A stretch of 64,000 nucleotides of DNA, taken from positions 555,151 through 619,150 of the forward strand of contig NZ_JAJCRR010000002.1 in the NCBI RefSeq assembly GCF_020564355.1, written 5' to 3'. The notes beneath the pieces were generated by a model. That model made no database searches. It was not told where the DNA came from and was given only the letters and a program-made list of their open reading frames with translations. The DNA is from Lachnospira pectinoschiza (GTDB lineage: Bacteria; Bacillota; Clostridia; Lachnospirales; Lachnospiraceae). Positions 38,524-47,624 of the stretch are shown here, one piece after another. The position numbers and the translations under genes were made by a program. Every line of letters begins with the position of its first letter. Position 1 is the stretch's first letter.

Positions 38524-39627
38524 TTATGCTATTTGTCTTAATCCTTCTGTCAGTATATTTTTCGCGGCATTGATATCCCTGTCATGTTCTGCTCCGCATT
38601 TCGGACATATCCATGTCCTCACTGACAAATTTTTTGTATCTGGATTCTGATACCCGCAAACAGAACATAATTGACTACTAGCATAAAATGTATCTATTTT
38701 GATGTATTTCCTGCCATTCCATTTTGCCTTATACTCTAACTGTCTTGTCAGCTCATACCATGATACATCACTTATGACTTTTGCCAGATGATGATTTTTT
38801 ACCATGTTTTTTATCTGTAAATTTTCTGAAACTATCACTTGGTTTTCGCTGATAATCTCATGTGAAACTTTATGTAGATAATCTTTTCTTATATTCCTTA
38901 TTTTCTCATGGCATAATGCTATCTTTTTCTTTGTTTTATAATAGTTCTTACTTCTCTTTCCTTTATGTGACAGTTGCCTTTGCAGCTTTACAAGCTGTTT
39001 CTCGTATTTTTTTATAATTTTTAGATTCTCATATACTTTCCCATCGGAAGTAATACATAAATCTTTAATTCCTAAATCGATTCCTATGTTATGATTTGTA
39101 TGTGCCAGTTCCTTATGCTCCGTTTCTACAAGTATGGACACATAGTATTTTCCACTGGAAACCTGCGAAACAGTCACTGACTTAATCTGCCCACTATATT
39201 CCCTGTGTAACCTTGCTTTTACCGCTTTTAATTTTGGCAATTTTATCTTCCCTGTCTCAAAATCTACCGCAATATTTCCATTTGTGAAGTTTGTTGTGTA
39301 TGATTTATGGCTATCGTGTTTGCTCTTGAATTTCGGATATCCTGCATGCTCCTTAAAGAATTTTTGATATGCAGCGTCCATGTTATAGATTGCGTTGGTC
39401 AGAGCAAATTTATCTATTTCTTTTAACCATTCATAGTCTTTCTTTAATTCTCTGTTACAGTAATTATTACAATCCGTTTTACTAACTGACTTTTTCTCTT
39501 TCTCGTATATTTCTTTCCGATATGCCAATGTCTGATTGTAAACAAAACGGCAACAGCCAAATGTTTTTGCAATCTGAATTCTTTGTTCACTATTAGGATA
39601 TATCCTGTATTTATATGCTTTTAACAC
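38524..39627 (-). CDS. tnpB: TnpB RNA-guided nuclease (IS605 OrfB)
   Basis: This is a 367-residue TnpB. The N-terminal helix-turn-helix segment K-A-Y-K-Y-R-I-Y-P-N is present. The RuvC nuclease residues are in G-I-D-L-G (Asp), V-S-E-N-L (Glu) and D-R-D-I-N-A-A-K-N (Asp), with a C-x2-C...C-x2-C zinc finger in between. I start at GTG 39627 (VLKAYKYR, GGAAGG upstream), 17 nt after the tnpA stop; a longer frame to 39780 would run into tnpA. The enzyme should cut the empty donor site under omega-RNA guidance and so retain the element. Confidence 0.93.
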   Translation of the reverse strand: MLKAYKYRIYPNSEQRIQIAKTFGCCRFVYNQTLAYRKEIYEKEKKSVSKTDCNNYCNRELKKDYEWLKEIDKFALTNAIYNMDAAYQKFFKEHAGYPKFKSKHDSHKSYTTNFTNGNIAVDFETGKIKLPKLKAVKARLHREYSGQIKSVTVSQVSSGKYYVSILVETEHKELAHTNHNIGIDLGIKDLCITSDGKVYENLKIIKKYEKQLVKLQRQLSHKGKRSKNYYKTKKKIALCHEKIRNIRKDYLHKVSHEIISENQVIVSENLQIKNMVKNHHLAKVISDVSWYELTRQLEYKAKWNGRKYIKIDTFYASSQLCSVCGYQNPDTKNLSVRTWICPKCGAEHDRDINAAKNILTEGLRQIA

Positions 39628-39644
39628 CCACTGTCGCCACCTTC

Positions 39645-40043
39645 CTACCCTTGATTTTCTATATATTTTCTCAACATCTCTTCTGAAACATTTCCTACAC
39701 TGCAGACAAAATATCCGTCCGTCCAAAAAGTATGTTCTTTCCAGAAATGTTTTCGTAGATAATCCGGATATCTTTTCCAAATATGATATGTTGTATAACT
39801 CTTCATCAGATTTACTATTTTACTAATAGACATTGTTGGTTCTGTTTCTATCATGTAATGAATATGATCTTTATCTGTCTCTATATATCTGATAATGACT
39901 TTATGCTTTTGACATATCTCATAAGAAAACTGCTTTATATCATCTGATATTTGTTTTGACATCAGCAATTTCTTTCTATACTTGCATACGAAAATAATAT
40001 GATACTGTAACAAATATTTGTGTCTGTTTTTTGATTTCCACAT
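39645..40043 (-). CDS. tnpA: IS200/IS605 Y1 transposase TnpA
   Basis: This HUH single-strand transposase has the metal-binding H-I-H in K-D-H-I-H-Y-M, the G-Y-F-V-C-S-V-G segment, and the C-terminal helix S-E-E-M-L-R-K-Y-I-E-N-Q with the nucleophile Tyr. I start at M-W-K-S-K-N-R (40043), about 132 residues, the family length; the upstream 30 codons of the open frame are the left-end hairpin region and not protein. Confidence 0.92.
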   Translation of the reverse strand: MWKSKNRHKYLLQYHIIFVCKYRKKLLMSKQISDDIKQFSYEICQKHKVIIRYIETDKDHIHYMIETEPTMSISKIVNLMKSYTTYHIWKRYPDYLRKHFWKEHTFWTDGYFVCSVGNVSEEMLRKYIENQG

Positions 40044-40203
40044 TCCCATAACGCAAGCATAGCACAAACCTCCGCTTCCGGCTAGCTTAACCCACCGTCT
40101 AAAGCTAGTGGGATTGCGGTAGCCCTCTTTCAATATTATTAAGTAAATTTATAAATCAGTTTATTTTTTAATCAATCTCATTTACTTTTTTCCAACACTG
40201 CCG

Positions 40204-40636: not shown

Positions 40637-40743
40637 TCTTTCTCCCCCTTTATTCGATTTTCGATTTCATACTGGAAAATTGGAATTGAGTTATTCCTAA
40701 GATACAAATGTAAACACATATTAAATATATATGATATAGATAT

Positions 40744-40797
40744 GCATTTGCATTTGCATTTGCATTTGCATTTGCATTTGCATTTGCATTTGCATTT
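40744..40797. repeat. Hexanucleotide tandem repeat (GCATTT)9
   Basis: Nine perfect copies of GCATTT (AAATGC on the minus strand) lie just upstream of the decayed Rpn gene. Period six keeps every reading frame open, which creates false open frames of alternating two-residue units. Copy number is likely to vary by slippage. The surrounding gap 40637-40929 shows no gene. Confidence 0.95.
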
Positions 40798-40929
40798 GCC
40801 AAGCCCTGAGCCTAATATCAGCAAAGGCTTCATAGATGTATGTTTTTTGTAGTTGTTTTTGCCTTACGGTATATGTATCATAACATATCCGTCTATATTT
40901 TGCAAGTGTTTCTTTATTTTTTATTATAT

Positions 40930-40997: not shown

Positions 40998-41441
40998 TTA
41001 CTGAAGAAGTGAAAGAACACCCTGATTCTGCTGATTAGCCTGTGCAAGCATAGACTGACCTGCCTGCATAAGAATGTTGTTCTTTGAGTAACTAACCATT
41101 TCTTCAGTCATATCTGTATCACGGATACGTGATTCAGCGGATGTTGTATTTTCAACAACGTTGTCAAGGTTAGAAATTGTATGCTCCAGACGGTTCTGGA
41201 CAGCACCTAATGCGGAACGCTGCTTAGAAACCTGCTTGATTGCATCGCTGATTGTATCAACTGCCTTATCAGCATTTGTTGAATCTGAACCGGTTACCTT
41301 AATTCCATCTACACCAATAGACTTTGCACTCATAGAATCCATTGTTACAGAAATCTTATTTTCACTCGTCGTATCTGCCCCTATCTGGAAGCTTAACAGT
41401 AATGCTTTAGAGCCGTTACTTAATGCTGTTTCACCTGATGC
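40998..41441 (-). pseudogene. Flagellin gene fragment (3' end only)
   Basis: The frame encodes the flagellin C-terminal D1/D0 region: L-L-L-S-F-Q-I-G-A-D-T-T-S-E-N-K followed by about 114 residues nearly identical to the complete flagellin at 42941, ending N-Q-Q-N-Q-G-V-L-S-L-L-Q. There is no N-terminal half, start site or promoter. The homology begins directly after the stop codon of the Rpn gene at 41442 and lies in the same frame as it. It could be a deletion relic or a silent donor for gene conversion with the intact gene. Confidence 0.9.
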
Positions 41442-42482
41442 TTATTTTTCTTCTTTTGATATACTTTGCGCCAGTTTTTCTACGGTTTCCTGTGGCAATT
41501 CAGCTAATTCTGCGACAGATTTTATGTCATTCCCCATATTAAGAAGTTTTGTGGCAATCTGAATTTTGGTTCGTTCTTCACCGATTCGAATTCCACTGGC
41601 TTCACCTTCGCGGCGCCCCTCCGCACGTCCGCGGTTTAAGATATCTTTTGCTTCATAGTTTAATACTTTTCCACCCATTGTCCGGCTCACCCCTTTCGCA
41701 ACATTTTTATATTTAACAGCAAGATGTTCTATGACTTTACGTGACATATCAAGAATAGCAGCTTTGGCATATCTGTTCAAGTCACCCATCTGGCAGGCGA
41801 TTTCAAGCCGTTCCCTAATTGAAGCATATTCTGCTTCCAGCTGCTTTAACTTTTTCTTGTTTTCTTCCAGTTCTTTAAAATCCTTCTCATATGCAAAAAT
41901 ATGAAACGGTATCAGAAAAAACAGTTTCCTTTCAAACAATTCATGAATCGTATAACGTTTTACCTTTAATACCGGCACGGTATAGGATACCCTTCCGCCC
42001 GGAGTTAAGACTTTAACCGTCATTTCTTCCGGCGTATTTTTAGTATGTCTAAGCGACACAATTGCTGAATCTGGGAATTGTACTGTCAAAATATTTGATG
42101 TAAACTCTCTGTTTTCTAATGCAAGCTGTGTATCATACTCAAACATTCGTACAATCATACTGCCGTCCTCGGTACTCTGACATTCAATGTGATATCGTTT
42201 GCGCTGTGCTGTATTACAGCCGACAGAGCCGCCGTAAAGCTGATTTTTTAGTACCTGTGGCATCGATGTTTCTTCACTACTGATAATTTCAAAGCTGGAA
42301 TCCGTAATCCGTTCCTGCTCACTACCGTCCGGCATTTTAATAAAATGCTCATTTTGCAGCAGGCAGATGGTTTCTTTTCCGGTGTAGTGCGTATGAAAAA
42401 TTTCATTGACAACCGGAATCATTAACTCCGTACAGTCGGTTAAAAGTGTACGGAATACATCATCGTAAGGTGTATTATCCAT
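41442..42482 (-). CDS. Rpn-like PD-(D/E)XK nuclease family protein
   Basis: This 346-residue protein belongs to the transposase-like nuclease family often annotated as Rpn or 'PD-(D/E)XK nuclease family transposase' in Lachnospiraceae. It opens D-D-V-F-R-T-L-L-T-D, and the nuclease core is R-Y-H-I-E-C-Q-S (E-x-Q). A coiled coil (about 205-235) and R-x-E-G-R-R-E-G-E segment follow, with a C-terminal helix pair L-N-M-G-x-D-I-K-S-V-A-E-L. Related Rpn proteins of E. coli promote recA-independent recombination. The ribosome site is GAAAGGAA, and a TATAAT lies upstream. Its 3' end abuts a flagellin fragment. Confidence 0.75.
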   Translation of the reverse strand: MDNTPYDDVFRTLLTDCTELMIPVVNEIFHTHYTGKETICLLQNEHFIKMPDGSEQERITDSSFEIISSEETSMPQVLKNQLYGGSVGCNTAQRKRYHIECQSTEDGSMIVRMFEYDTQLALENREFTSNILTVQFPDSAIVSLRHTKNTPEEMTVKVLTPGGRVSYTVPVLKVKRYTIHELFERKLFFLIPFHIFAYEKDFKELEENKKKLKQLEAEYASIRERLEIACQMGDLNRYAKAAILDMSRKVIEHLAVKYKNVAKGVSRTMGGKVLNYEAKDILNRGRAEGRREGEASGIRIGEERTKIQIATKLLNMGNDIKSVAELAELPQETVEKLAQSISKEEK

Positions 42483-42940: not shown

Positions 42941-44242
42941 TTACTGAAGAAGTGAAAGAACACCCTGATTCTGCTGATTAGCCTGTGCAAGCATAGACTG
43001 ACCTGCCTGCATAAGAATGTTGTTCTTTGAGTAGCTAACCATTTCTTCAGCCATATCTGTATCACGGATACGTGATTCAGCAGATGTTGTATTTTCAACA
43101 ACGTTGTCAAGGTTAGAAATTGTATGCTCCAGACGGTTCTGAACAGCACCTAAAGCTGAACGCTGCTTAGAAACCTTCTTAATTGCATCACTGATTGTAT
43201 CAACTGCCTTATCAGCATTTGTTGAATCTGAACCGGTTACTTTCAGTTGATCTACACCAATAGACTTTGCACTCATTGACTGCATTGCAACAGTAATCTT
43301 ATTTTCAGAAGTTGTATCAGCTCCAACCTGAAAACTGAGCAATAAATCACTTGCATTAGAAGCTGTTACTTTTACATAATTTGCAATCTGTTCTGCACCA
43401 ACTTCTGTTGCTGTACCATCAGTTGCAGCTTTATAAAGTCCACCTTTATATGTACCGTCTGCATCAAAGTAATTCGCTAAATCAGCTTCTTTGACAGCAG
43501 TTCCATCCTGCAGTGTTAATGCCGTACTCTTAGCAGTTAACACAGCCTGTATATCTGCTACAGCTGCTATTTTGTCTTTCTTCTGAGCACCATATTGACC
43601 AGTAGTATCAGCTGCTTCCGTATACAATTTCTTGCCTTCCTTTAATGCAACTTTACCATCTGTTCCTACTTCAAGATAATCCGATTTTAATTCATCAAGT
43701 GTTAACTTCGTAGTCCCACCTTCTGCATACCATGCTAAATCAGCAGCTGTTTTGTTAGCCGCATAACCAATGTCATTTGTAACAGGTGTCTTATAAGAAG
43801 CTGAATATGTCTTAGCACCAGTATCATCACCCTTTAACAGATAAGTTTCATTAAACTTTGTTGTTTCTGAAACTCTGTCAATTTCATCAACTAACTGGTC
43901 AATTTCATCCTGAACGTTCTGTCTGTCATCTTCTGACATTGTTCCGTTGCCAGCCTTTACTGCCAGTTCATTCATACGCTGTAACATAGAATGTACTTCT
44001 GTTAAAGCACCTTCTGCTGTCTGTACGCAGGAAATACCGTCTTCTGCATTATCAGAAGCCTGTGAAAGACCACGGATCTGCTTTCTCATCTTTTCAGAAA
44101 TTGAAAGTCCGGCTGCATCATCTGCAGCACGATTAATCTTATAACCGCTTGATAACTTCTCTGTTGACTTTGCCTGACCTGTTGTTGTAACGCCTAACAT
44201 TCTGTTTGCGTTCATCGCTGTAATATTGTGCTGTACTACCAT
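42941..44242 (-). CDS. fliC: Flagellin
   Basis: This 433-residue flagellin has conserved N-terminal D0/D1 (about 1-140: V-Q-H-N-I-T-A-M-N-A-N-R-M-L, S-S-G-Y-K-I-N-R-A-A-D-D-A-A-G-L) and C-terminal D1/D0 (about 325-433), with a variable surface domain of about 185 residues between. The TLR5-contact helix reads Q-R-M-N-E-L-A-V. The sequence type is that of Lachnospiraceae flagellins. The leader carries GGAGGT 8 nt before the ATG. No promoter of its own is evident between it and csrA, so it probably depends on the sigma-28 promoter at 44802-44828. Confidence 0.97.
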   Translation of the reverse strand: MVVQHNITAMNANRMLGVTTTGQAKSTEKLSSGYKINRAADDAAGLSISEKMRKQIRGLSQASDNAEDGISCVQTAEGALTEVHSMLQRMNELAVKAGNGTMSEDDRQNVQDEIDQLVDEIDRVSETTKFNETYLLKGDDTGAKTYSASYKTPVTNDIGYAANKTAADLAWYAEGGTTKLTLDELKSDYLEVGTDGKVALKEGKKLYTEAADTTGQYGAQKKDKIAAVADIQAVLTAKSTALTLQDGTAVKEADLANYFDADGTYKGGLYKAATDGTATEVGAEQIANYVKVTASNASDLLLSFQVGADTTSENKITVAMQSMSAKSIGVDQLKVTGSDSTNADKAVDTISDAIKKVSKQRSALGAVQNRLEHTISNLDNVVENTTSAESRIRDTDMAEEMVSYSKNNILMQAGQSMLAQANQQNQGVLSLLQ

Positions 44243-44250
44243 ATTTGTTT

Positions 44251-44302
44251 ACCTCCATGTGTGTAAAAATGTTTTTTCCGGGAAATCCGTTCCCTTGGAT
44301 TT
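44251..44302 (-). promoter_or_regulatory. Possible CsrA-binding leader of flagellin
   Basis: On the minus strand a hairpin AAATCC-AAGGGAAC-GGATTT exposes GGGA in its loop (44302-44283), and ACATGGAGGT (44260-44251) has GGA within the ribosome site, close to the CsrA consensus. In B. subtilis, CsrA represses hag through two such sites. Inference from pattern only. Confidence 0.45.
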
Positions 44303-44342
44303 ATATAATAAGCAGGCGCCTAGGTTCACCCGCATATTACCG

Positions 44343-44612
44343 TTAGTGTTCTGTATTGCGTTTTTTTTCGCGCATTAAAATACTGACAATCTCACGCTGT
44401 GCTTCTTCGGATATACCTTTTTCCCTGTAATATGTCCGCGCACTCTGTTCCGGCTGTTCCTTTTTCTTTCCGGCTGAGCTTCTTGCTATATTGACTTCTT
44501 TGGGTGCATCAACCAGCAAATGAATATTATTTGCCGAACCGCCTGAAAAAATCACACGGACATTCTCACCGATATCAATAAACTCACCCGGTCTTAACGA
44601 AAGCTTTAACAT
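44343..44612 (-). CDS. csrA: CsrA-like carbon storage / flagellin translation regulator
   Basis: This 89-residue RNA-binding protein is recognisable as CsrA by M-L-K-L-S-L-R-P-G-E-F-I-D-I-G and D-A-P-K-E-V-N-I-A-R. It is divergent: position 6 of the family (Arg in E. coli) is Leu, the usual V-x-R-E-E-I region is R-S-S-A-G-K-K-K, and a charged 35-residue tail (to E-K-K-R-N-T-E-H) follows. AAGGAGG precedes the ATG. It sits 100 nt upstream of flagellin on the same strand, as in Bacillus, but no fliW is present in the window. Confidence 0.8.
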   Translation of the reverse strand: MLKLSLRPGEFIDIGENVRVIFSGGSANNIHLLVDAPKEVNIARSSAGKKKEQPEQSARTYYREKGISEEAQREIVSILMREKKRNTEH

Positions 44613-44640
44613 ACAAACCTCCTTGTTTTTATCATTATGT

Positions 44641-44667
44641 CAATTTGTTTCGTTCAGAAACAAATTG
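44641..44667 (-). repeat. Perfect inverted repeat in the csrA leader
   Basis: Eleven-bp arms CAATTTGTTTC and GAAACAAATTG flank GTTCA. The arm contains CAATTTGTT, also found within the inversion sites at 44753 and 45515, so it may be a hairpin in the RNA or an extra recombinase-binding element. Confidence 0.8.
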
Positions 44668-44669
44668 CT

Positions 44670-44704
44670 GTGTGAATAATCTTCAATTTAAGGATTATTC
44701 ACAC
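44670..44704 (-). repeat. Perfect inverted repeat overlapping a mini-ORF in the csrA leader
   Basis: Twelve-bp arms GTGTGAATAATC / GATTATTCACAC are separated by 11 nt. On the minus strand an AAGGAGGT site (44714-44707) precedes a four-codon frame GTG-AAT-AAT-CCT-TAA (44702-44688) lying inside the hairpin. Possible leader-peptide control or RNA structure; unproven. Confidence 0.7.
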
Positions 44705-44752
44705 TTACCTCCTTGTTTTTCCGAAGGGATTTTTTTCCTCCATTTGCGCCAT

Positions 44753-44783
44753 AATGCAACAATTTGTTATAAACTGTTGCATT
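44753..44783 (+). repeat. Left inversion site (IR-L)
   Basis: Arm AATGCAACAATT (44753-44764), centre TGTTATA (44765-44771), arm AACTGTTGCATT (44772-44783). The arms are inverted copies matching at 11 of 12 positions, the classic 12-7-12 layout of a tyrosine recombinase core site. The first 21 bases are perfectly repeated in inverted orientation at 45525-45545. Confidence 0.85.
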
Positions 44784-44801
44784 CTCATCGCTACATAATA
44801 T

Positions 44802-44828
44802 AAATCGGTCTTTAATAAAAATACTTTA
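44802..44828 (-). promoter_or_regulatory. Sigma-28/sigma-D flagellar promoter inside the invertible segment
   Basis: On the minus strand TAAAGTAT starts at 44828, and ACCGATTT occupies 44809-44802, separated by 11 nt. This is very close to the flagellar consensus TAAAGTTT-N11-GCCGATAA. Transcription should begin near 44795, run through IR-L and into csrA and flagellin. Confidence 0.8.
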
Positions 44829-44893
44829 GCCTTTTTTGAAAAAAATTTAAAAAATTTTTTAAGTGCGTTTATCAGCCGGTTTCCTCGCGTTTT

Positions 44894-45472
44894 TTATAGA
44901 TTTAAATGCAGAAAAACGTCATCTTTATCATCTTGTTCAATTCCCAGATACCGTTTTGTAATGGCATAGGACGAATGGTTGTAAATATCCATCAGAACCG
45001 CAGGCGGCGTGCCGCATTTCCATGCGTGATAACCGAAGGTTTTACGCATAGAATGGCAGGACAGCTTATTTTCAAAATGAAGCTGTTCACTGGCGTGCCG
45101 TATAATGCGGAAAGCCTGTGTGCGGCTTAGATGTTGGTCACTGTTTCTTCCGGGGAAAATGTAGCTGTTTGCAGTAACCTGTCCAAGACTGTTCATATAA
45201 CAGCAAAGTCCCTGTGTAGCATTTTGGTTTAAGGCAATGCGTGTTTCCTTTCCTGTTTTTTGTTCCTGAATGGAAATGTGTGTCAGAAAGCAGTTTCGTT
45301 CAAAGGAATAAACGTCGCTCCAGCGTAATTTCAATAAATCACTGATTCTTAATGCCGAATTAATGCCAAGACAGATTAATGCATAGTTGCGCAGATTCTG
45401 CTCTGTTTTATAGTAGTATTCCTTTAGTTTCTGTAAATCTTTCCGATTTCTGATTGGTTGTGATGTACTCAT
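44894..45472 (-). CDS. Small (FimB/FimE-size) tyrosine recombinase, candidate flagellar invertase
   Basis: This 192-residue protein consists of the catalytic domain only, as in FimB/FimE-type DNA invertases and B. subtilis YoeC. The residues are all present: Arg in A-L-R-I-S-D-L, Lys in Q-K-T-G-K-E-T-R, H-x-x-R in C-H-S-M-R-K, His in Y-N-H-S-S, and nucleophile Tyr in T-K-R-Y-L-G. The start ATG follows a GCCGT-TCAC-ACGGC hairpin and AGGAAGGGG. The gene lies entirely between two inverted 31-bp sites with no phage genes nearby, so self-contained inversion is the likely job. Confidence 0.88.
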   Translation of the reverse strand: MSTSQPIRNRKDLQKLKEYYYKTEQNLRNYALICLGINSALRISDLLKLRWSDVYSFERNCFLTHISIQEQKTGKETRIALNQNATQGLCCYMNSLGQVTANSYIFPGRNSDQHLSRTQAFRIIRHASEQLHFENKLSCHSMRKTFGYHAWKCGTPPAVLMDIYNHSSYAITKRYLGIEQDDKDDVFLHLNL

Positions 45473-45484
45473 AGAACCCCTTCC

Positions 45485-45500
45485 TGCCGTGTGAACGGCA
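45485..45500 (-). promoter_or_regulatory. Start-proximal hairpin before the recombinase gene
   Basis: TGCCGT-TCAC-ACGGCA on the minus strand is followed by GGAAGGGG and the start codon, the recurring hairpin/ribosome-site layout of this genome. Confidence 0.5.
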
Positions 45501-45514
45501 ATTCTTTATTTATA

Positions 45515-45545
45515 CATGTAACATTTTATAACAAATTGTTGCATT
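45515..45545 (-). repeat. Right inversion site (IR-R)
   Basis: Read on the minus strand: arm AATGCAACAATT (45545-45534), centre TGTTATA (45533-45527), arm AAATGTTACATG (45526-45515). The left arm and the 7-bp centre are identical to IR-L; the inner arm is weaker (9 of 12 to the inverted outer arm). The identical asymmetric centre in opposite orientation predicts inversion and not deletion. Confidence 0.85.
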
Positions 45546-45642
45546 CTTTTTTATTTTATCTGTTACATTTTCAGCTTTGCGTCCATGCTCTGCCCGATTG
45601 TAACCAGACTTTTAAAATATCTTTTACTGCATTTAAAGCATA

Positions 45643-45684
45643 AATAAAAAACGTAGAAGCTCATTAACCGATGAACTTCCACGC
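45643..45684 (-). terminator. Terminator after rsfS
   Basis: The CGTGGAAGTTCAT / ATGAGCTTCTACG stem is followed by TTTTTTATTT on the minus strand. In the opposite direction the hairpin would stand in the path of the sigma-28 promoter if the switch were inverted. Confidence 0.88.
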
Positions 45685-45715
45685 TTCTTTTGTATTTTAT
45701 ACTGTCTAAAACATT

Positions 45716-46072
45716 TTATAATGAATCCACATCAATTTCTTTTCCGTCACGCCAGATACGCTCCAAATCATAAAACAGACGGTCGTCCTGTGAAAATACA
45801 TGCACAATGACATCATTGTAATCTAAAAGCACCCATGACGCGGTATTATAGCCTTCTACACGCGGGTCGTCATAGCCTGCCTTGTACATCTGTTCTTCTA
45901 CGTTATCTACAAGTGCCTGCACCTGATTCGGATTAGAACCGCTTGCAATAATAAAATAATCTGCAATGACGGTTACGCCGCTGATATCAATCACACGGAT
46001 ATCTTCGCCCTTCTTATCCTGTAATGCAGCGACTGCTGTTTTCACCATTTCTTTTGCATTCTTCTCTGCCAT
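45716..46072 (-). CDS. rsfS: Ribosome silencing factor RsfS
   Basis: This 118-residue RsfS (Iojap family) binds ribosomal protein L14 and blocks subunit joining during starvation. The conserved pattern is I-A-D-Y-F-I-I-A-S-G-S-N-x-x-Q-V-Q-A-L, E-G-Y-N-T-A-S-W-V-L-L-D-Y and V-I-V-H-V-F. It directly follows yqeK with its stop/start abutting. Confidence 0.96.
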   Translation of the reverse strand: MAEKNAKEMVKTAVAALQDKKGEDIRVIDISGVTVIADYFIIASGSNPNQVQALVDNVEEQMYKAGYDDPRVEGYNTASWVLLDYNDVIVHVFSQDDRLFYDLERIWRDGKEIDVDSL

Positions 46073-46669
46073 TTATTTGTCTCCTTTTTTAGCTAAATTT
46101 TGATAATACTCATACGTCTGAACCGTTGCCGGGTCGATACTACCGCCTTTTTTCTCTAAATAAGCAAGCGTATCCTTCGTCACCTGATAAATTGCTCTTT
46201 CCAAATCCATAAATGCAAGCTGACGGATTGTATCCAGATTTTGTGCATGGTTGCGGTACGGCTCAATATAATCCGCGATATAGACGATTTCTTCCAGCTT
46301 TGTCATGCCCGCATGTCCCGTTGTGTGCCAGTAAATTGCACTGCAAATGGACGGATCTTCGATATGGTACAATTCCTTTGCATAATATGCACCGAGCTTT
46401 GCATGGAGCAGATACAGACTATTCTTTTCAAATTCAGTCACTTCTATACCATAGCGGTTACATTCCTCTAACTTGACCGTATCCGGGACACATTTTGCAC
46501 AGTCGTGCAGAAGCCCTGCAATATAAGCTTTCTGCATATCCACGCCATATCGCATGGCAAGGCACGCACTGGTATCCGCAACGCCTAATGTATGACGGTA
46601 GCGCATTTTATCTTCTTTTAAAGCTTTTTTAACCTGTTTGCGTAAATCTTCAATATATCCGTTATTCAT
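46073..46669 (-). CDS. yqeK: YqeK-type HD phosphohydrolase
   Basis: This 198-residue HD-domain enzyme has metal ligands in R-H-T-L-G-V-A, L-L-H-D-C-A-K and W-H-T-T-G, and I-V-Y-I-A-D-Y-I-E. Family members hydrolyse diadenosine tetraphosphate symmetrically to ADP. It lies in the standard nadD-yqeK-rsfS order. Confidence 0.93.
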   Translation of the reverse strand: MNNGYIEDLRKQVKKALKEDKMRYRHTLGVADTSACLAMRYGVDMQKAYIAGLLHDCAKCVPDTVKLEECNRYGIEVTEFEKNSLYLLHAKLGAYYAKELYHIEDPSICSAIYWHTTGHAGMTKLEEIVYIADYIEPYRNHAQNLDTIRQLAFMDLERAIYQVTKDTLAYLEKKGGSIDPATVQTYEYYQNLAKKGDK

Positions 46670-46710
46670 ACTACTCCGTTTCTGATTAATCCGTAGGCAT
46701 TTTCATGCCA

Positions 46711-47316
46711 TTACTGATACAAATGATGTTCTCTGATATACCTTTCAACCGTTTTAGGAAGCATTCCGTCAACGGATTCTCCTGCCTGGAGCTTCTTTCG
46801 GATATCGGTTGAACTATACGGCATATCCGGTGTCTTTAAAAATGCAATTTCCGCCCCATAATTTTTCTCCAGCATCCGCTTTTGTTCTGCCAGTTCCGCC
46901 TTTGCGTGTACATCACGGTTCGCCGCCAGTAAAATACAATGCTGCATCACATATTCCGGTTCATGCCATTTCGGCAGATCAAACAGGGAATCCGCACCGA
47001 TAATAAAATAAATTTTCAGGTCCGGATTTTGTCTGTGCAGAGCCTTTAACGTATCTGATGTATACGTATTTCCTTTCCGCTCAACTTCTAAAAGCGACAG
47101 CTCCAGATAGGGATAATCTGCAATGGCTCCGGATACCATTTGACAGCGGTGTGATGCTGCAATCAGTTCCTTTGTACTTTTATGTGCCGGTGTTCCCGAC
47201 GGCATGACCAGCACCTTTGAAAGTTCAAACTGCCGGTATGCCTGTAGTGCAAGCTGTAAATGTCCGTTATGAAACGGATTAAACGTCCCACCCATAATAC
47301 CGATTGCGGATTTCAT
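46711..47316 (-). CDS. nadD: Nicotinate-nucleotide adenylyltransferase
   Basis: NadD makes deamido-NAD from nicotinate mononucleotide and ATP. The nucleotidyltransferase motif is G-G-T-F-N-P-F-H-N-G-H near the N terminus and the C-terminal motif is S-S-T-D-I-R-K near 172. The length is 201 residues. Its ATG overlaps the yhbY stop (TAATG). Confidence 0.96.
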   Translation of the reverse strand: MKSAIGIMGGTFNPFHNGHLQLALQAYRQFELSKVLVMPSGTPAHKSTKELIAASHRCQMVSGAIADYPYLELSLLEVERKGNTYTSDTLKALHRQNPDLKIYFIIGADSLFDLPKWHEPEYVMQHCILLAANRDVHAKAELAEQKRMLEKNYGAEIAFLKTPDMPYSSTDIRKKLQAGESVDGMLPKTVERYIREHHLYQ

Positions 47317-47624
47317 TATTTTCCTGCCTTTTTCGCCGGTGGAAGTTCGATTCTTTTGTTATCCTTTGATTCCTTATATAATACAATCTTTTTTCCAATA
47401 ACCTGAACGACCTGTGAACGGGTACGCTCTGCTAAAATCTGTGCCATTTCATTCGGATCGTCCGCACAGTTTTGTAATACATTGATTTTAATCAGTTCCC
47501 TTGCATTCAAAGCTTCCTCGATTGCCTTTGTATTTTCCGGTGTCAGGCTGGATTTGCCTAACTGAAAAATCGGATCAATGGTCATTGCTAGTCCCTTTAA
47601 ATAAGAACGCTGTTTACTTGTCAT
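47316..47624 (-). CDS. yhbY: YhbY/CRM-domain RNA-binding protein
   Basis: This 102-residue CRM-domain protein has the pattern L-K-G-L-A-x-x-I-D-P-I-F-Q-L-G-K-S and G-K-K-I-V-L-Y near the end. It is thought to act in ribosome assembly on 50S precursors. It follows obg and precedes nadD in one tight run. Confidence 0.93.
   Translation of the reverse strand: MTSKQRSYLKGLAMTIDPIFQLGKSSLTPENTKAIEEALNARELIKINVLQNCADDPNEMAQILAERTRSQVVQVIGKKIVLYKESKDNKRIELPPAKKAGK

What the first reader, a model, noticed from the sequence alone, without database searches (positions are those of the whole stretch)
44753..45545. Hin-like flagellar phase switch built on a tyrosine recombinase
Two inverted 31-bp sites flank a catalytic-domain-only tyrosine recombinase gene and a sigma-28 promoter. 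Each site has the 12-7-12 form expected for this enzyme class: arm AATGCAACAATT, identical asymmetric centre TGTTATA, inverted inner arm. Over 30 aligned positions the two sites match at 28, with 21 consecutive identical. The promoter lies just inside the left site and points out through it into csrA and flagellin. Inversion would turn both genes off and aim the promoter at the terminator after rsfS. Known switches are the serine-recombinase Hin segment of Salmonella and the recombinase-unlinked flg switch of C. difficile; a self-contained segment with its own tyrosine recombinase, controlling a CsrA plus flagellin pair, is to my knowledge not standard.
Basis: partly seen in the sequence, partly recalled or inferred. 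Interest (0 to 1): 0.93.

Follow-up and report, generated by a model that had tools for sequence, protein, structure and literature searches.

The report
Self-flipping flagellin switch with built-in terminator
A 0.76-kb DNA segment in a gut-type Lachnospiraceae bacterium, bounded by two inverted sites and holding its own recombinase gene and a predicted flagellar promoter, likely flips to switch a CsrA-like regulator and a flagellin on or off; the same segment lies in opposite orientations in different relatives, and in the off position the recombination site is predicted to complete a transcription terminator.

Summary
The two 31-nt sites, the 192-aa tyrosine recombinase and an outward sigma-28-type promoter are there; the best inverted pair is 28/30, against at most 23 in 60 shuffles. 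The same module (sites, recombinase, promoter, csrA, flagellin) stands in 45 of 76 distinct recombinase loci examined, the window included. The window is assembled ON; of 38 loci of its type 36 are OFF and 2 ON. In the comparisons made the break of synteny lies at the sites. The central 7 nt are identical within every pair (30 of 30 with a defined centre) yet form 23 different 7-mers, the mark of strand exchange. Three additions: (1) the OFF outlet completes a longer hairpin plus T-tract that the ON outlet mostly lacks; (2) the csrA is not the house CsrA but a separate group tied to the switch, and its flagellin leader carries a CsrA-type GGA hairpin; (3) another recombinase clade has other sites and reversed polarity. 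Inversion within one population was not observed; no reads or own genome were available. Judged a new variant of a known kind. The boldest open reading is a Hin-fljBA analogue in which the second CsrA silences the main flagellin.

The parts
44753..44783 (.). left recombination site (centre 44768, core TGTTATA); csrA side in the assembled ON orientation
   Evidence: core identical within pair in 30 of 30 type-I loci with a defined centre
45515..45545 (.). right recombination site (centre 45530); its outer arm is followed by a T-rich tract (CTTTTTTATTTTA) that would complete the OFF-state terminator
44784..45514 (.). invertible segment between the sites (731 nt)
44894..45472 (-). tyrosine recombinase, catalytic domain only, 192 aa; R42, K72, H140, R143, H166, Y175 invariant in 24 aligned sequences, window included
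   Evidence: naming of these columns as catalytic is recalled from Cre/Xer
44802..44828 (-). sigma-28-type promoter, pointing out through the left site to csrA and flagellin
   Evidence: a match of 19-24 of 25 lies inside the segment in all 45 loci that have csrA and a site pair
44343..44612 (-). divergent CsrA paralogue (CsrA2), 89 aa with a C-terminal extension
44243..44342 (-). flagellin leader with hairpin AGGGAACGGATTTCCCG (GGA in the loop) and ATGGAGG Shine-Dalgarno: CsrA-type sites; no sigma-28 match
42941..44242 (-). flagellin, 433 aa
45646..45689 (-). terminator-like hairpin after rsfS, beyond the right site

Best explanation
This is a self-contained invertible promoter module: a catalytic-domain-only tyrosine recombinase gene and a predicted sigma-28 promoter lie between two inverted 31-nt sites, and the recombinase likely recombines the sites to flip the segment. 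Shown: the window holds the promoter aimed at csrA2-flagellin (ON), most related loci hold the same segment the other way round (OFF), the change of synteny falls at the sites in the comparisons made, and the crossover core is identical within each pair but differs between loci. Inferred: in ON, sigma-28 RNA polymerase transcribes csrA2 and a flagellin that has no recognisable sigma-28 promoter of its own. In OFF the promoter would run outward into the distal site, where the inner arm carried by the promoter end and the outer arm plus T-tract of the flank together form an intrinsic terminator. CsrA2 likely binds the GGA hairpin in the flagellin leader and so tunes flagellin translation. The assemblies suggest OFF is the common state.
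For: Module in 45 of 76 distinct recombinase loci at 45% identity or more, window included: 38 type I and 7 type II. Orientation of type I: 36 OFF, 2 ON (window, L047). In the window, 44753-45059 matches OFF locus L059 collinearly with the recombinase while the csrA-flagellin flank 43816-44629 matches it inverted; L047 against L045, L051 and L058 shows the same. Core 7 nt identical in 30 of 30 pairs, 23 different cores, 7/7 between loci in 3.0%; 127 mismatches in the 31 nt of these pairs, none in the core, P = 7.7e-15 if spread evenly. Terminator, 38 type-I loci: T in the 12 nt after the arm 7.5 (OFF outlet) against 2.6 (ON outlet), greater in 36 with 2 ties; fold energy -20.0 against -10.5, stronger in 37. 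Pairing of 8 flank positions in 30 loci: OFF outlet 6.27, the three other combinations 2.57-3.07; swapping distal flanks among loci gave 5.73 at most in 2000 tries. In the 7 type II loci the OFF outlet folds more strongly in 7 of 7 and has more T after the arm in 7 of 7. csrA2 and recombinase: both 25, recombinase only 1, csrA2 only 2, neither 34 of 62 genomes. GGA in a hairpin loop in 36 of 40 flagellin leaders against 10.6 from shuffles. No sigma-28 match of 19 or more within 220 nt of the flagellin in 40 of 40 switch loci scanned.
Against: No read-level or same-strain evidence of both orientations: the collections hold one genome per species and none for the window. Close pairs with near-identical recombinases (L048/L052, L057/L061, L065/L071, L007/L012, L006/L038) are all in the same, OFF, orientation. 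The ON state rests on 2 of 45 loci. For the window itself the fold energies of the OFF and ON outlets hardly differ (-19.0 and -18.4); only the T-tract does (10 against 3 of 12). 8 of the 38 type-I loci have an ill-defined site centre, so their T counts are rough. In L057, L061 and L091 the T difference is small (1-2 of 12). Loci share ancestry, so test p-values are too small. No promoter for the recombinase itself was identified; in nine loci only 20-30 nt separate site and start codon. L054 and L082 have csrA beside the recombinase but no site pair was found. The OFF-outlet hairpin also lies behind the recombinase gene, so it may serve to end that transcript too.
Confidence: 0.84

Rival explanations
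1. The segment is an ordinary fim-like invertible promoter: it flips, but the hairpin at the sites is only a recombinase binding palindrome, and the T-tract is chance or serves another transcript such as that of the recombinase.
For: Sites are near-palindromic in both outlets; fim-type switches by tyrosine recombinases are well known (passages); in OFF the hairpin also lies behind the recombinase gene.
Against: Flank pairing and T-tract are a property of the OFF outlet, own distal flanks beat swapped ones in all 2000 shuffles, and a second site family with reversed polarity shows the same trend. In L001 and L002 the distal gene runs away from the site, so the hairpin is not the terminator of that gene.
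Confidence: 0.13
2. The switch of the window is a locked relic: the architecture is inherited but the recombinase no longer acts here, so flagellin is constitutively ON.
For: No inverted reads available; the two sites of the window differ at 3 of 31 positions; close relatives of other loci keep one orientation.
Against: The core is identical in both sites, the recombinase ORF is intact with all candidate catalytic residues, and a cluster of 386 sequences 93% identical to it is on record.
Confidence: 0.1
3. The recombinase is the integrase of a small mobile element and the inverted repeats are its ends or attachment sites rather than inversion sites.
For: Beyond the distal site lie seven different genes in eight relatives, and phage or viral contigs carry recombinases up to 55% identical.
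Against: The segment changes orientation relative to csrA and flagellin; sites are inverted, not direct; csrA2 and flagellin travel with it outside the sites. Target duplications were not looked for.
Confidence: 0.03

Closest known systems
Hin switch of Salmonella (hin, hixL/hixR, fljBA)
   Same: Recombinase gene and outward promoter inside an inverted-site segment (966 bp there, PMC5903667 passage); controls an alternative flagellin together with a regulator gene (PMC9368917 passages; hin inside the segment, PMC2784873 passage).
   Different: Tyrosine, not serine, recombinase; 7-nt core with flanking arms; regulator is a CsrA paralogue placed before the flagellin, not FljA after it; predicted OFF terminator built from the site.
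flg switch of Clostridioides difficile (RecV)
   Same: Tyrosine recombinase, inverted repeats, motility genes (PMC5386303 passages).
   Different: There the 154-bp element lies in the 5' UTR without a functional promoter and acts through Rho (PMC7446863 passages), and RecV is unlinked (recalled); here promoter and recombinase are inside and csrA2-flagellin is the target.
cwpV switch of C. difficile
   Same: Intrinsic terminator proposed to form in the OFF transcript by inversion (PMC2784873 abstract and passages).
   Different: There the promoter is outside the element; here the promoter moves with the element, and its OFF outlet is predicted to be terminated.
fim switch of Escherichia coli (fimS, FimB/FimE)
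   Same: Small tyrosine recombinases, invertible promoter; our protein matches two NCBIfam 'tyrosine-type DNA invertase' models at E 3.9e-11 and 9.7e-7, below their cut-offs.
   Different: The fim recombinases lie beside the switch, not in it (PMC2784873 passage); different target and sigma factor. L017, L036 and L053 do have a fim-like layout with the recombinase outside.
hCom2 inverton group 139 (Clostridia, tyrosine recombinase nearby)
   Same: Clostridial invertons with a neighbouring tyrosine-type recombinase; two of them change orientation in culture (PMC11892184 passages).
   Different: The main text does not contain 'flagel'; whether any of those elements is this module could not be checked.

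Membership tests
Invertible-promoter phase switch (site-specific inversion) | inverted sites flank a promoter | tested here: met
   the promoter is a sequence match, not a mapped start
Invertible-promoter phase switch (site-specific inversion) | segment found in both orientations | tested here: met
   across species only: 2 ON and 36 OFF of 38 type-I loci, break at the sites in the comparisons made
Invertible-promoter phase switch (site-specific inversion) | reversible inversion within one population | not testable with these tools
   no reads, no own genome, one genome per species
Invertible-promoter phase switch (site-specific inversion) | expression of the target depends on orientation | not testable with these tools
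   no expression data
Tyrosine recombinase | Pfam Phage_integrase domain and conserved R, K, HxxR, H, Y residues | tested here: met
   structure search finds XerA, Xer and Cre, 52 hits at E 0.001 or less; model pLDDT 76 with a weak C-terminal part
Hin family (serine invertase switch) | serine recombinase | tested here: not met
   protein is PF00589; it works like Hin but is not a member
CsrA family | Pfam CsrA domain over its cut-off | tested here: met
   56 bits, cut-off 27
CsrA family | NCBIfam csrA equivalog | tested here: not met
   26.5 and 25.8 bits against cut-offs 73 and 70.1; 44 switch CsrAs form one side of a branch against 12 house CsrAs, support 100/99, 29% identity between groups
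cwpV-type terminator switch | terminator present in only one orientation | tested here: met
   in silico only, as a trend over 38 and 7 loci
cwpV-type terminator switch | promoter outside the invertible element | tested here: not met
   promoter match lies inside

The most novel reading that the evidence does not exclude
Gut Lachnospiraceae evolved, with a tyrosine recombinase, their own counterpart of the Salmonella Hin-fljBA system: flipping ON makes an alternative flagellin together with a dedicated CsrA paralogue, with no FliW beside it, that silences the main flagellin mRNA, so the filament is swapped rather than added, while each recombination site doubles as half of a terminator that is put together only in the OFF state and keeps the spare flagellin tightly silent.
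Probability: 0.32. Interest if true: 0.93.

Novelty: new variant of a known kind. Interest (0 to 1): 0.83.

Why it matters
Flagellins of gut commensals, Lachnospiraceae among them, draw strong antibody responses (search listings with abstract starts). A heritable flip that decides which flagellin a cell makes could explain mixed motility and antigen make-up in isolates and metagenomes, and would mean that flagellin gene counts do not tell expression. Mechanistically it joins three things seen apart before: recombinase inside the segment (Hin), tyrosine chemistry (fim, flg) and terminator by inversion (cwpV), and it shows the terminator pattern in two site families with opposite polarity. It supplies dozens of test loci, at least one in a named strain (L007, Petralouisia muris NM01_1-7b, by its record title).

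Tried and rejected
Own-genome search for further sites: no genome is held for the window. Viral origin: 76 recombinase relatives in viral contigs, none with a csrA hit and one (L159) with a flagellin hit nearby; 171 phage records match, the best at 55%, but their surroundings were not read; so no phage copy of the module was found in what I looked at. Taxonomic reach: 6 of 391 class genomes hit at E 1e-45; of the 7 new loci from that search (L221-L227, read) only L225 has csrA, from a genome already in the family set, so I met the module in this family's searches only. Recombinase promoter: nothing consistent by eye; left open. Type II was first labelled ON by my script because recombinase and csrA are codirectional; the promoter there lies on the other side and points away, so all 7 are OFF. 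TldR reading of the nearby TnpB: rejected by eye, since its D/E/D motifs look intact and a TnpA is beside it.

Rows not examined or dropped: seven matches listed without a fetched locus (in G006 three, one of them a fragment; G018, G045, G333 and G379 one each); partial or distant matches (under 150 residues or under 45% identity, such as L013 and L067) by the script's filter; 8 of 38 type-I loci from all counts that need a defined site centre; 5 of 45 loci without a flagellin in reach from the leader counts.

Literature: nine searches listed no paper that I recognised as describing this module; only listings were seen, except for the passages cited. The library lacks most subscription papers, and the main inverton survey (Jiang 2019, PMC6543533) is not held, so a mention there or in supplements cannot be excluded.

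Full report
WHAT IS THERE. The window holds, on the minus strand, rsfS (45716-46072), a recombinase gene (44894-45472), csrA (44343-44612) and flagellin (42941-44242). Two near-palindromic 31-nt sites in inverse orientation, 44753-44783 and 45515-45545, bound a 731-nt segment with the recombinase and a sigma-28-type promoter. Over 30 positions 28 match, 21 in a row. In 60 dinucleotide-preserving shuffles of 43500-47500 the best 30-nt inverted pair over 200 nt apart was 23. Pfam: Phage_integrase, CsrA, Flagellin_N and Flagellin_C. The promoter TAAAGTATTTTTATTAAAGACCGATTT (44802-44828) resembles the consensus TAAA-N15-CCGATAT and its Butyrivibrio form TAAA-N16-17-MCGATAa, both printed in PMC3720852 (passages), and points out through the left site toward csrA. 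The window is thus assembled in the ON orientation.

ORGANISM. No genome is held for the window. Its Obg protein is identical to proteins on unnamed contigs; among the 120 hits listed the organism names seen are Lachnospira, at 87%. The recombinase has clusters at 86-93%, then hits at 72% and below; among the 120 listed of 5023, the organism names seen are Eubacterium sp. CAG:76 and Lachnospiraceae bacterium.

RELATIVES. One scan of named genomes gave 13 loci; in 9 of the 13 a csrA stands beside the recombinase, divergent from it, the opposite of the window, and all 9 have flanking inverted repeats. The loci and the window give 76 distinct recombinase genes with 45% identity or more; seven listed matches without a fetched locus were not read. 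Of the 76, 45 have an inverted pair of at least 21 of 26 and csrA adjacent, and all 45 have a sigma-28-like match of 19-24 of 25 inside the segment; 22 have no csrA in reach; 9 have csrA but no pair in my search range. Of those 9, 8 were looked at more widely: six have good pairs, namely short elements with the recombinase outside (L017, L036, L053) and longer segments (L062, L068, L076); L054 and L082 have none. The ninth, L090, has a weak pair of 19 of 26.

TWO POLARITIES. In 38 loci (type I, the window's kind) the promoter lies at the 3' end of the recombinase gene; 36 are assembled OFF and 2 ON (window, L047). In 7 loci (type II: L057, L061, L064, L070, L089, L091, L093) the site is of the GTAACACAAT type, the promoter lies at the 5' end and points the other way, and all are OFF. 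Their recombinases fall in one supported set of eight with L062 (98/97). One more type-I locus met later, L225, is OFF. So 43 of 45 assemblies are OFF.

INVERSION. Against the OFF locus L059 the window matches collinearly over 44753-45059 (recombinase end, promoter, site) and inverted over 43816-44629 (csrA and flagellin start); L047 against L045, L051 and L058 gives the same picture with the break at the sites. Among the 30 of 38 type-I loci whose centre is well defined, the central 7 nt are identical in both sites in all 30, there are 23 different 7-mers, and two different loci agree at 7/7 in only 3.0% of comparisons. None of 127 mismatches falls in the core (P 7.7e-15 for an even spread; 3.1e-9 if only the 23-nt middle is counted). 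This is what strand exchange demands of a tyrosine recombinase (recalled principle) and is hard to get otherwise. Against it: five close pairs of loci are all OFF, and no single species was seen both ways.

SITE AS TERMINATOR. I computed both outlets of the promoter for the 38 type-I loci. OFF outlet: 7.5 T in the 12 nt behind the arm and -20.0 kcal/mol; ON outlet: 2.6 and -10.5; OFF has more T in 36 of 38 (2 ties) and the stronger fold in 37 of 38. Pairing of eight flank positions beyond the arm, in the 30 loci with a defined centre, is 6.27 for the OFF outlet and 2.57, 3.07 and 3.03 for the other three combinations of ends; exchanging distal flanks among these loci never reached the observed value in 2000 tries. 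In the window the OFF junction would read GAATGCAACAGTTTATAACAAATTGTTGCATTC followed by TTTTTTATTTTA, although its two halves lie 0.76 kb apart in the assembly; its fold is hardly stronger than in ON (-19.0 and -18.4), the difference is the T-tract (10 against 3). In the 7 type II loci the OFF outlet folds more strongly in 7 of 7 and has more T in 7 of 7, though by only 1-2 of 12 in L057, L061 and L091. The hairpin also lies behind the recombinase gene and may end that transcript as well. Termination itself is untested. An OFF-transcript terminator was proposed for cwpV (PMC2784873, abstract and passages), there with the promoter outside.

CSRA2 AND FLAGELLIN. In 62 genomes of the genus two CsrA classes appear: a house CsrA (E 1e-23 or better) and a divergent class (E 1e-17 to 1e-6). 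The second occurs in 27 genomes, 25 of them among the 26 with the recombinase (Fisher p 5.9e-14, ancestry not corrected). On a tree 44 switch CsrAs stand apart from 12 house CsrAs with 100/99 support, 29% identity between groups. FliW is single copy in 11 of 11 genomes searched; in the 9 of these whose house csrA was placed, fliW lies directly beside it. The switch flagellin leaders carry a hairpin with GGA in the loop in 36 of 40 against 10.6 in approximate shuffles; 5 of the 45 loci had no flagellin in reach. No sigma-28 match of 19 or more lies within 220 nt before the flagellin in any of these 40, window included. In a separate set of 30 flagellin loci from 11 genomes, none of 12 csrA2-linked flagellins had such a match, while 8 of 17 unlinked loci did, and 6 of these 8 carry a GCATGGA-type hairpin about 40 nt before the start. 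All 11 genomes have two or more Flagellin_N matches. Hence the switched flagellin is likely a spare one in those genomes; for the window's own organism this is unknown. CsrA2 may act on it, on the main flagellin, or on both. CsrA inhibits flagellin expression in B. subtilis (PMC3720852 passage). In Salmonella, FljA, made with FljB, represses fliC; the passage in PMC9368917 calls this transcriptional, its cited source has 'posttranscriptional control mechanism' in the title.

CONTEXT. The gene beyond the distal site differs: rsfS in the window, and by Pfam leuA-type, yebC, heavy-metal ATPase, ftsH-type, clpP-type and UDP-GlcNAc epimerase in L001, L002, L005, L006, L009 and L011; L007 and L012 share one gene without a Pfam hit; for L003 no ORF was listed. 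The recombinase-csrA2-flagellin module therefore appears to move as a block. The mechanism of movement is unknown.

OPEN. What transcribes the recombinase is unclear: in nine type-I loci only 20-30 nt separate the site from its start codon, so its promoter may lie in the site or outside, and its expression may depend on orientation. This is a guess that could explain the OFF bias.

VERDICT. The module is a new variant of a known kind, found here many times in Lachnospiraceae and, in the nine searches listed, not met in print.

Noticed in passing
window 40998-41342(-): An ORF with only the C-terminal flagellin domain (114 aa, PF00700), a near copy by eye of the end of the switched flagellin: a silent fragment that might serve as a gene-conversion donor.
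   Followed up: partly
window 38524-40133(-): IS200/IS605-type element (TnpB-like plus Y1 transposase) close to the flagellin fragment; TnpB motifs look intact by eye, so not a nuclease-dead TldR.
   Followed up: partly
window 41442-42482(-): 346-aa ORF without a Pfam match, resembling Rpn-type nuclease/transposase proteins by eye, between the two flagellin pieces.
   Followed up: no
window 40721-40852: Short tandem repeat of TGCATT-like units read as KCKCKC or QMQMQM in two frames.
   Followed up: no
L017, L036, L053: csrA2-linked loci with a short inverted-site element (about 120-390 nt between arms) and the recombinase outside it: a fim-like layout of the same system; a sigma-28 match inside the element was listed for L036 and L053, not for L017.
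   Followed up: partly
L007 (Petralouisia muris NM01_1-7b): A named strain carries the switch with perfect 30-nt arms: a convenient test organism.
   Followed up: partly
G006 and G009 (genomes of L007 and L012): Many recombinase matches (11 and 7, distant ones included) and 7 and 11 Flagellin_N matches: several independent switches may run in one genome.
   Followed up: no
L008 / L219, L084, L087: Related recombinases flanked by inverted repeats but without csrA or flagellin hits nearby: other targets of the same invertase family.
   Followed up: no
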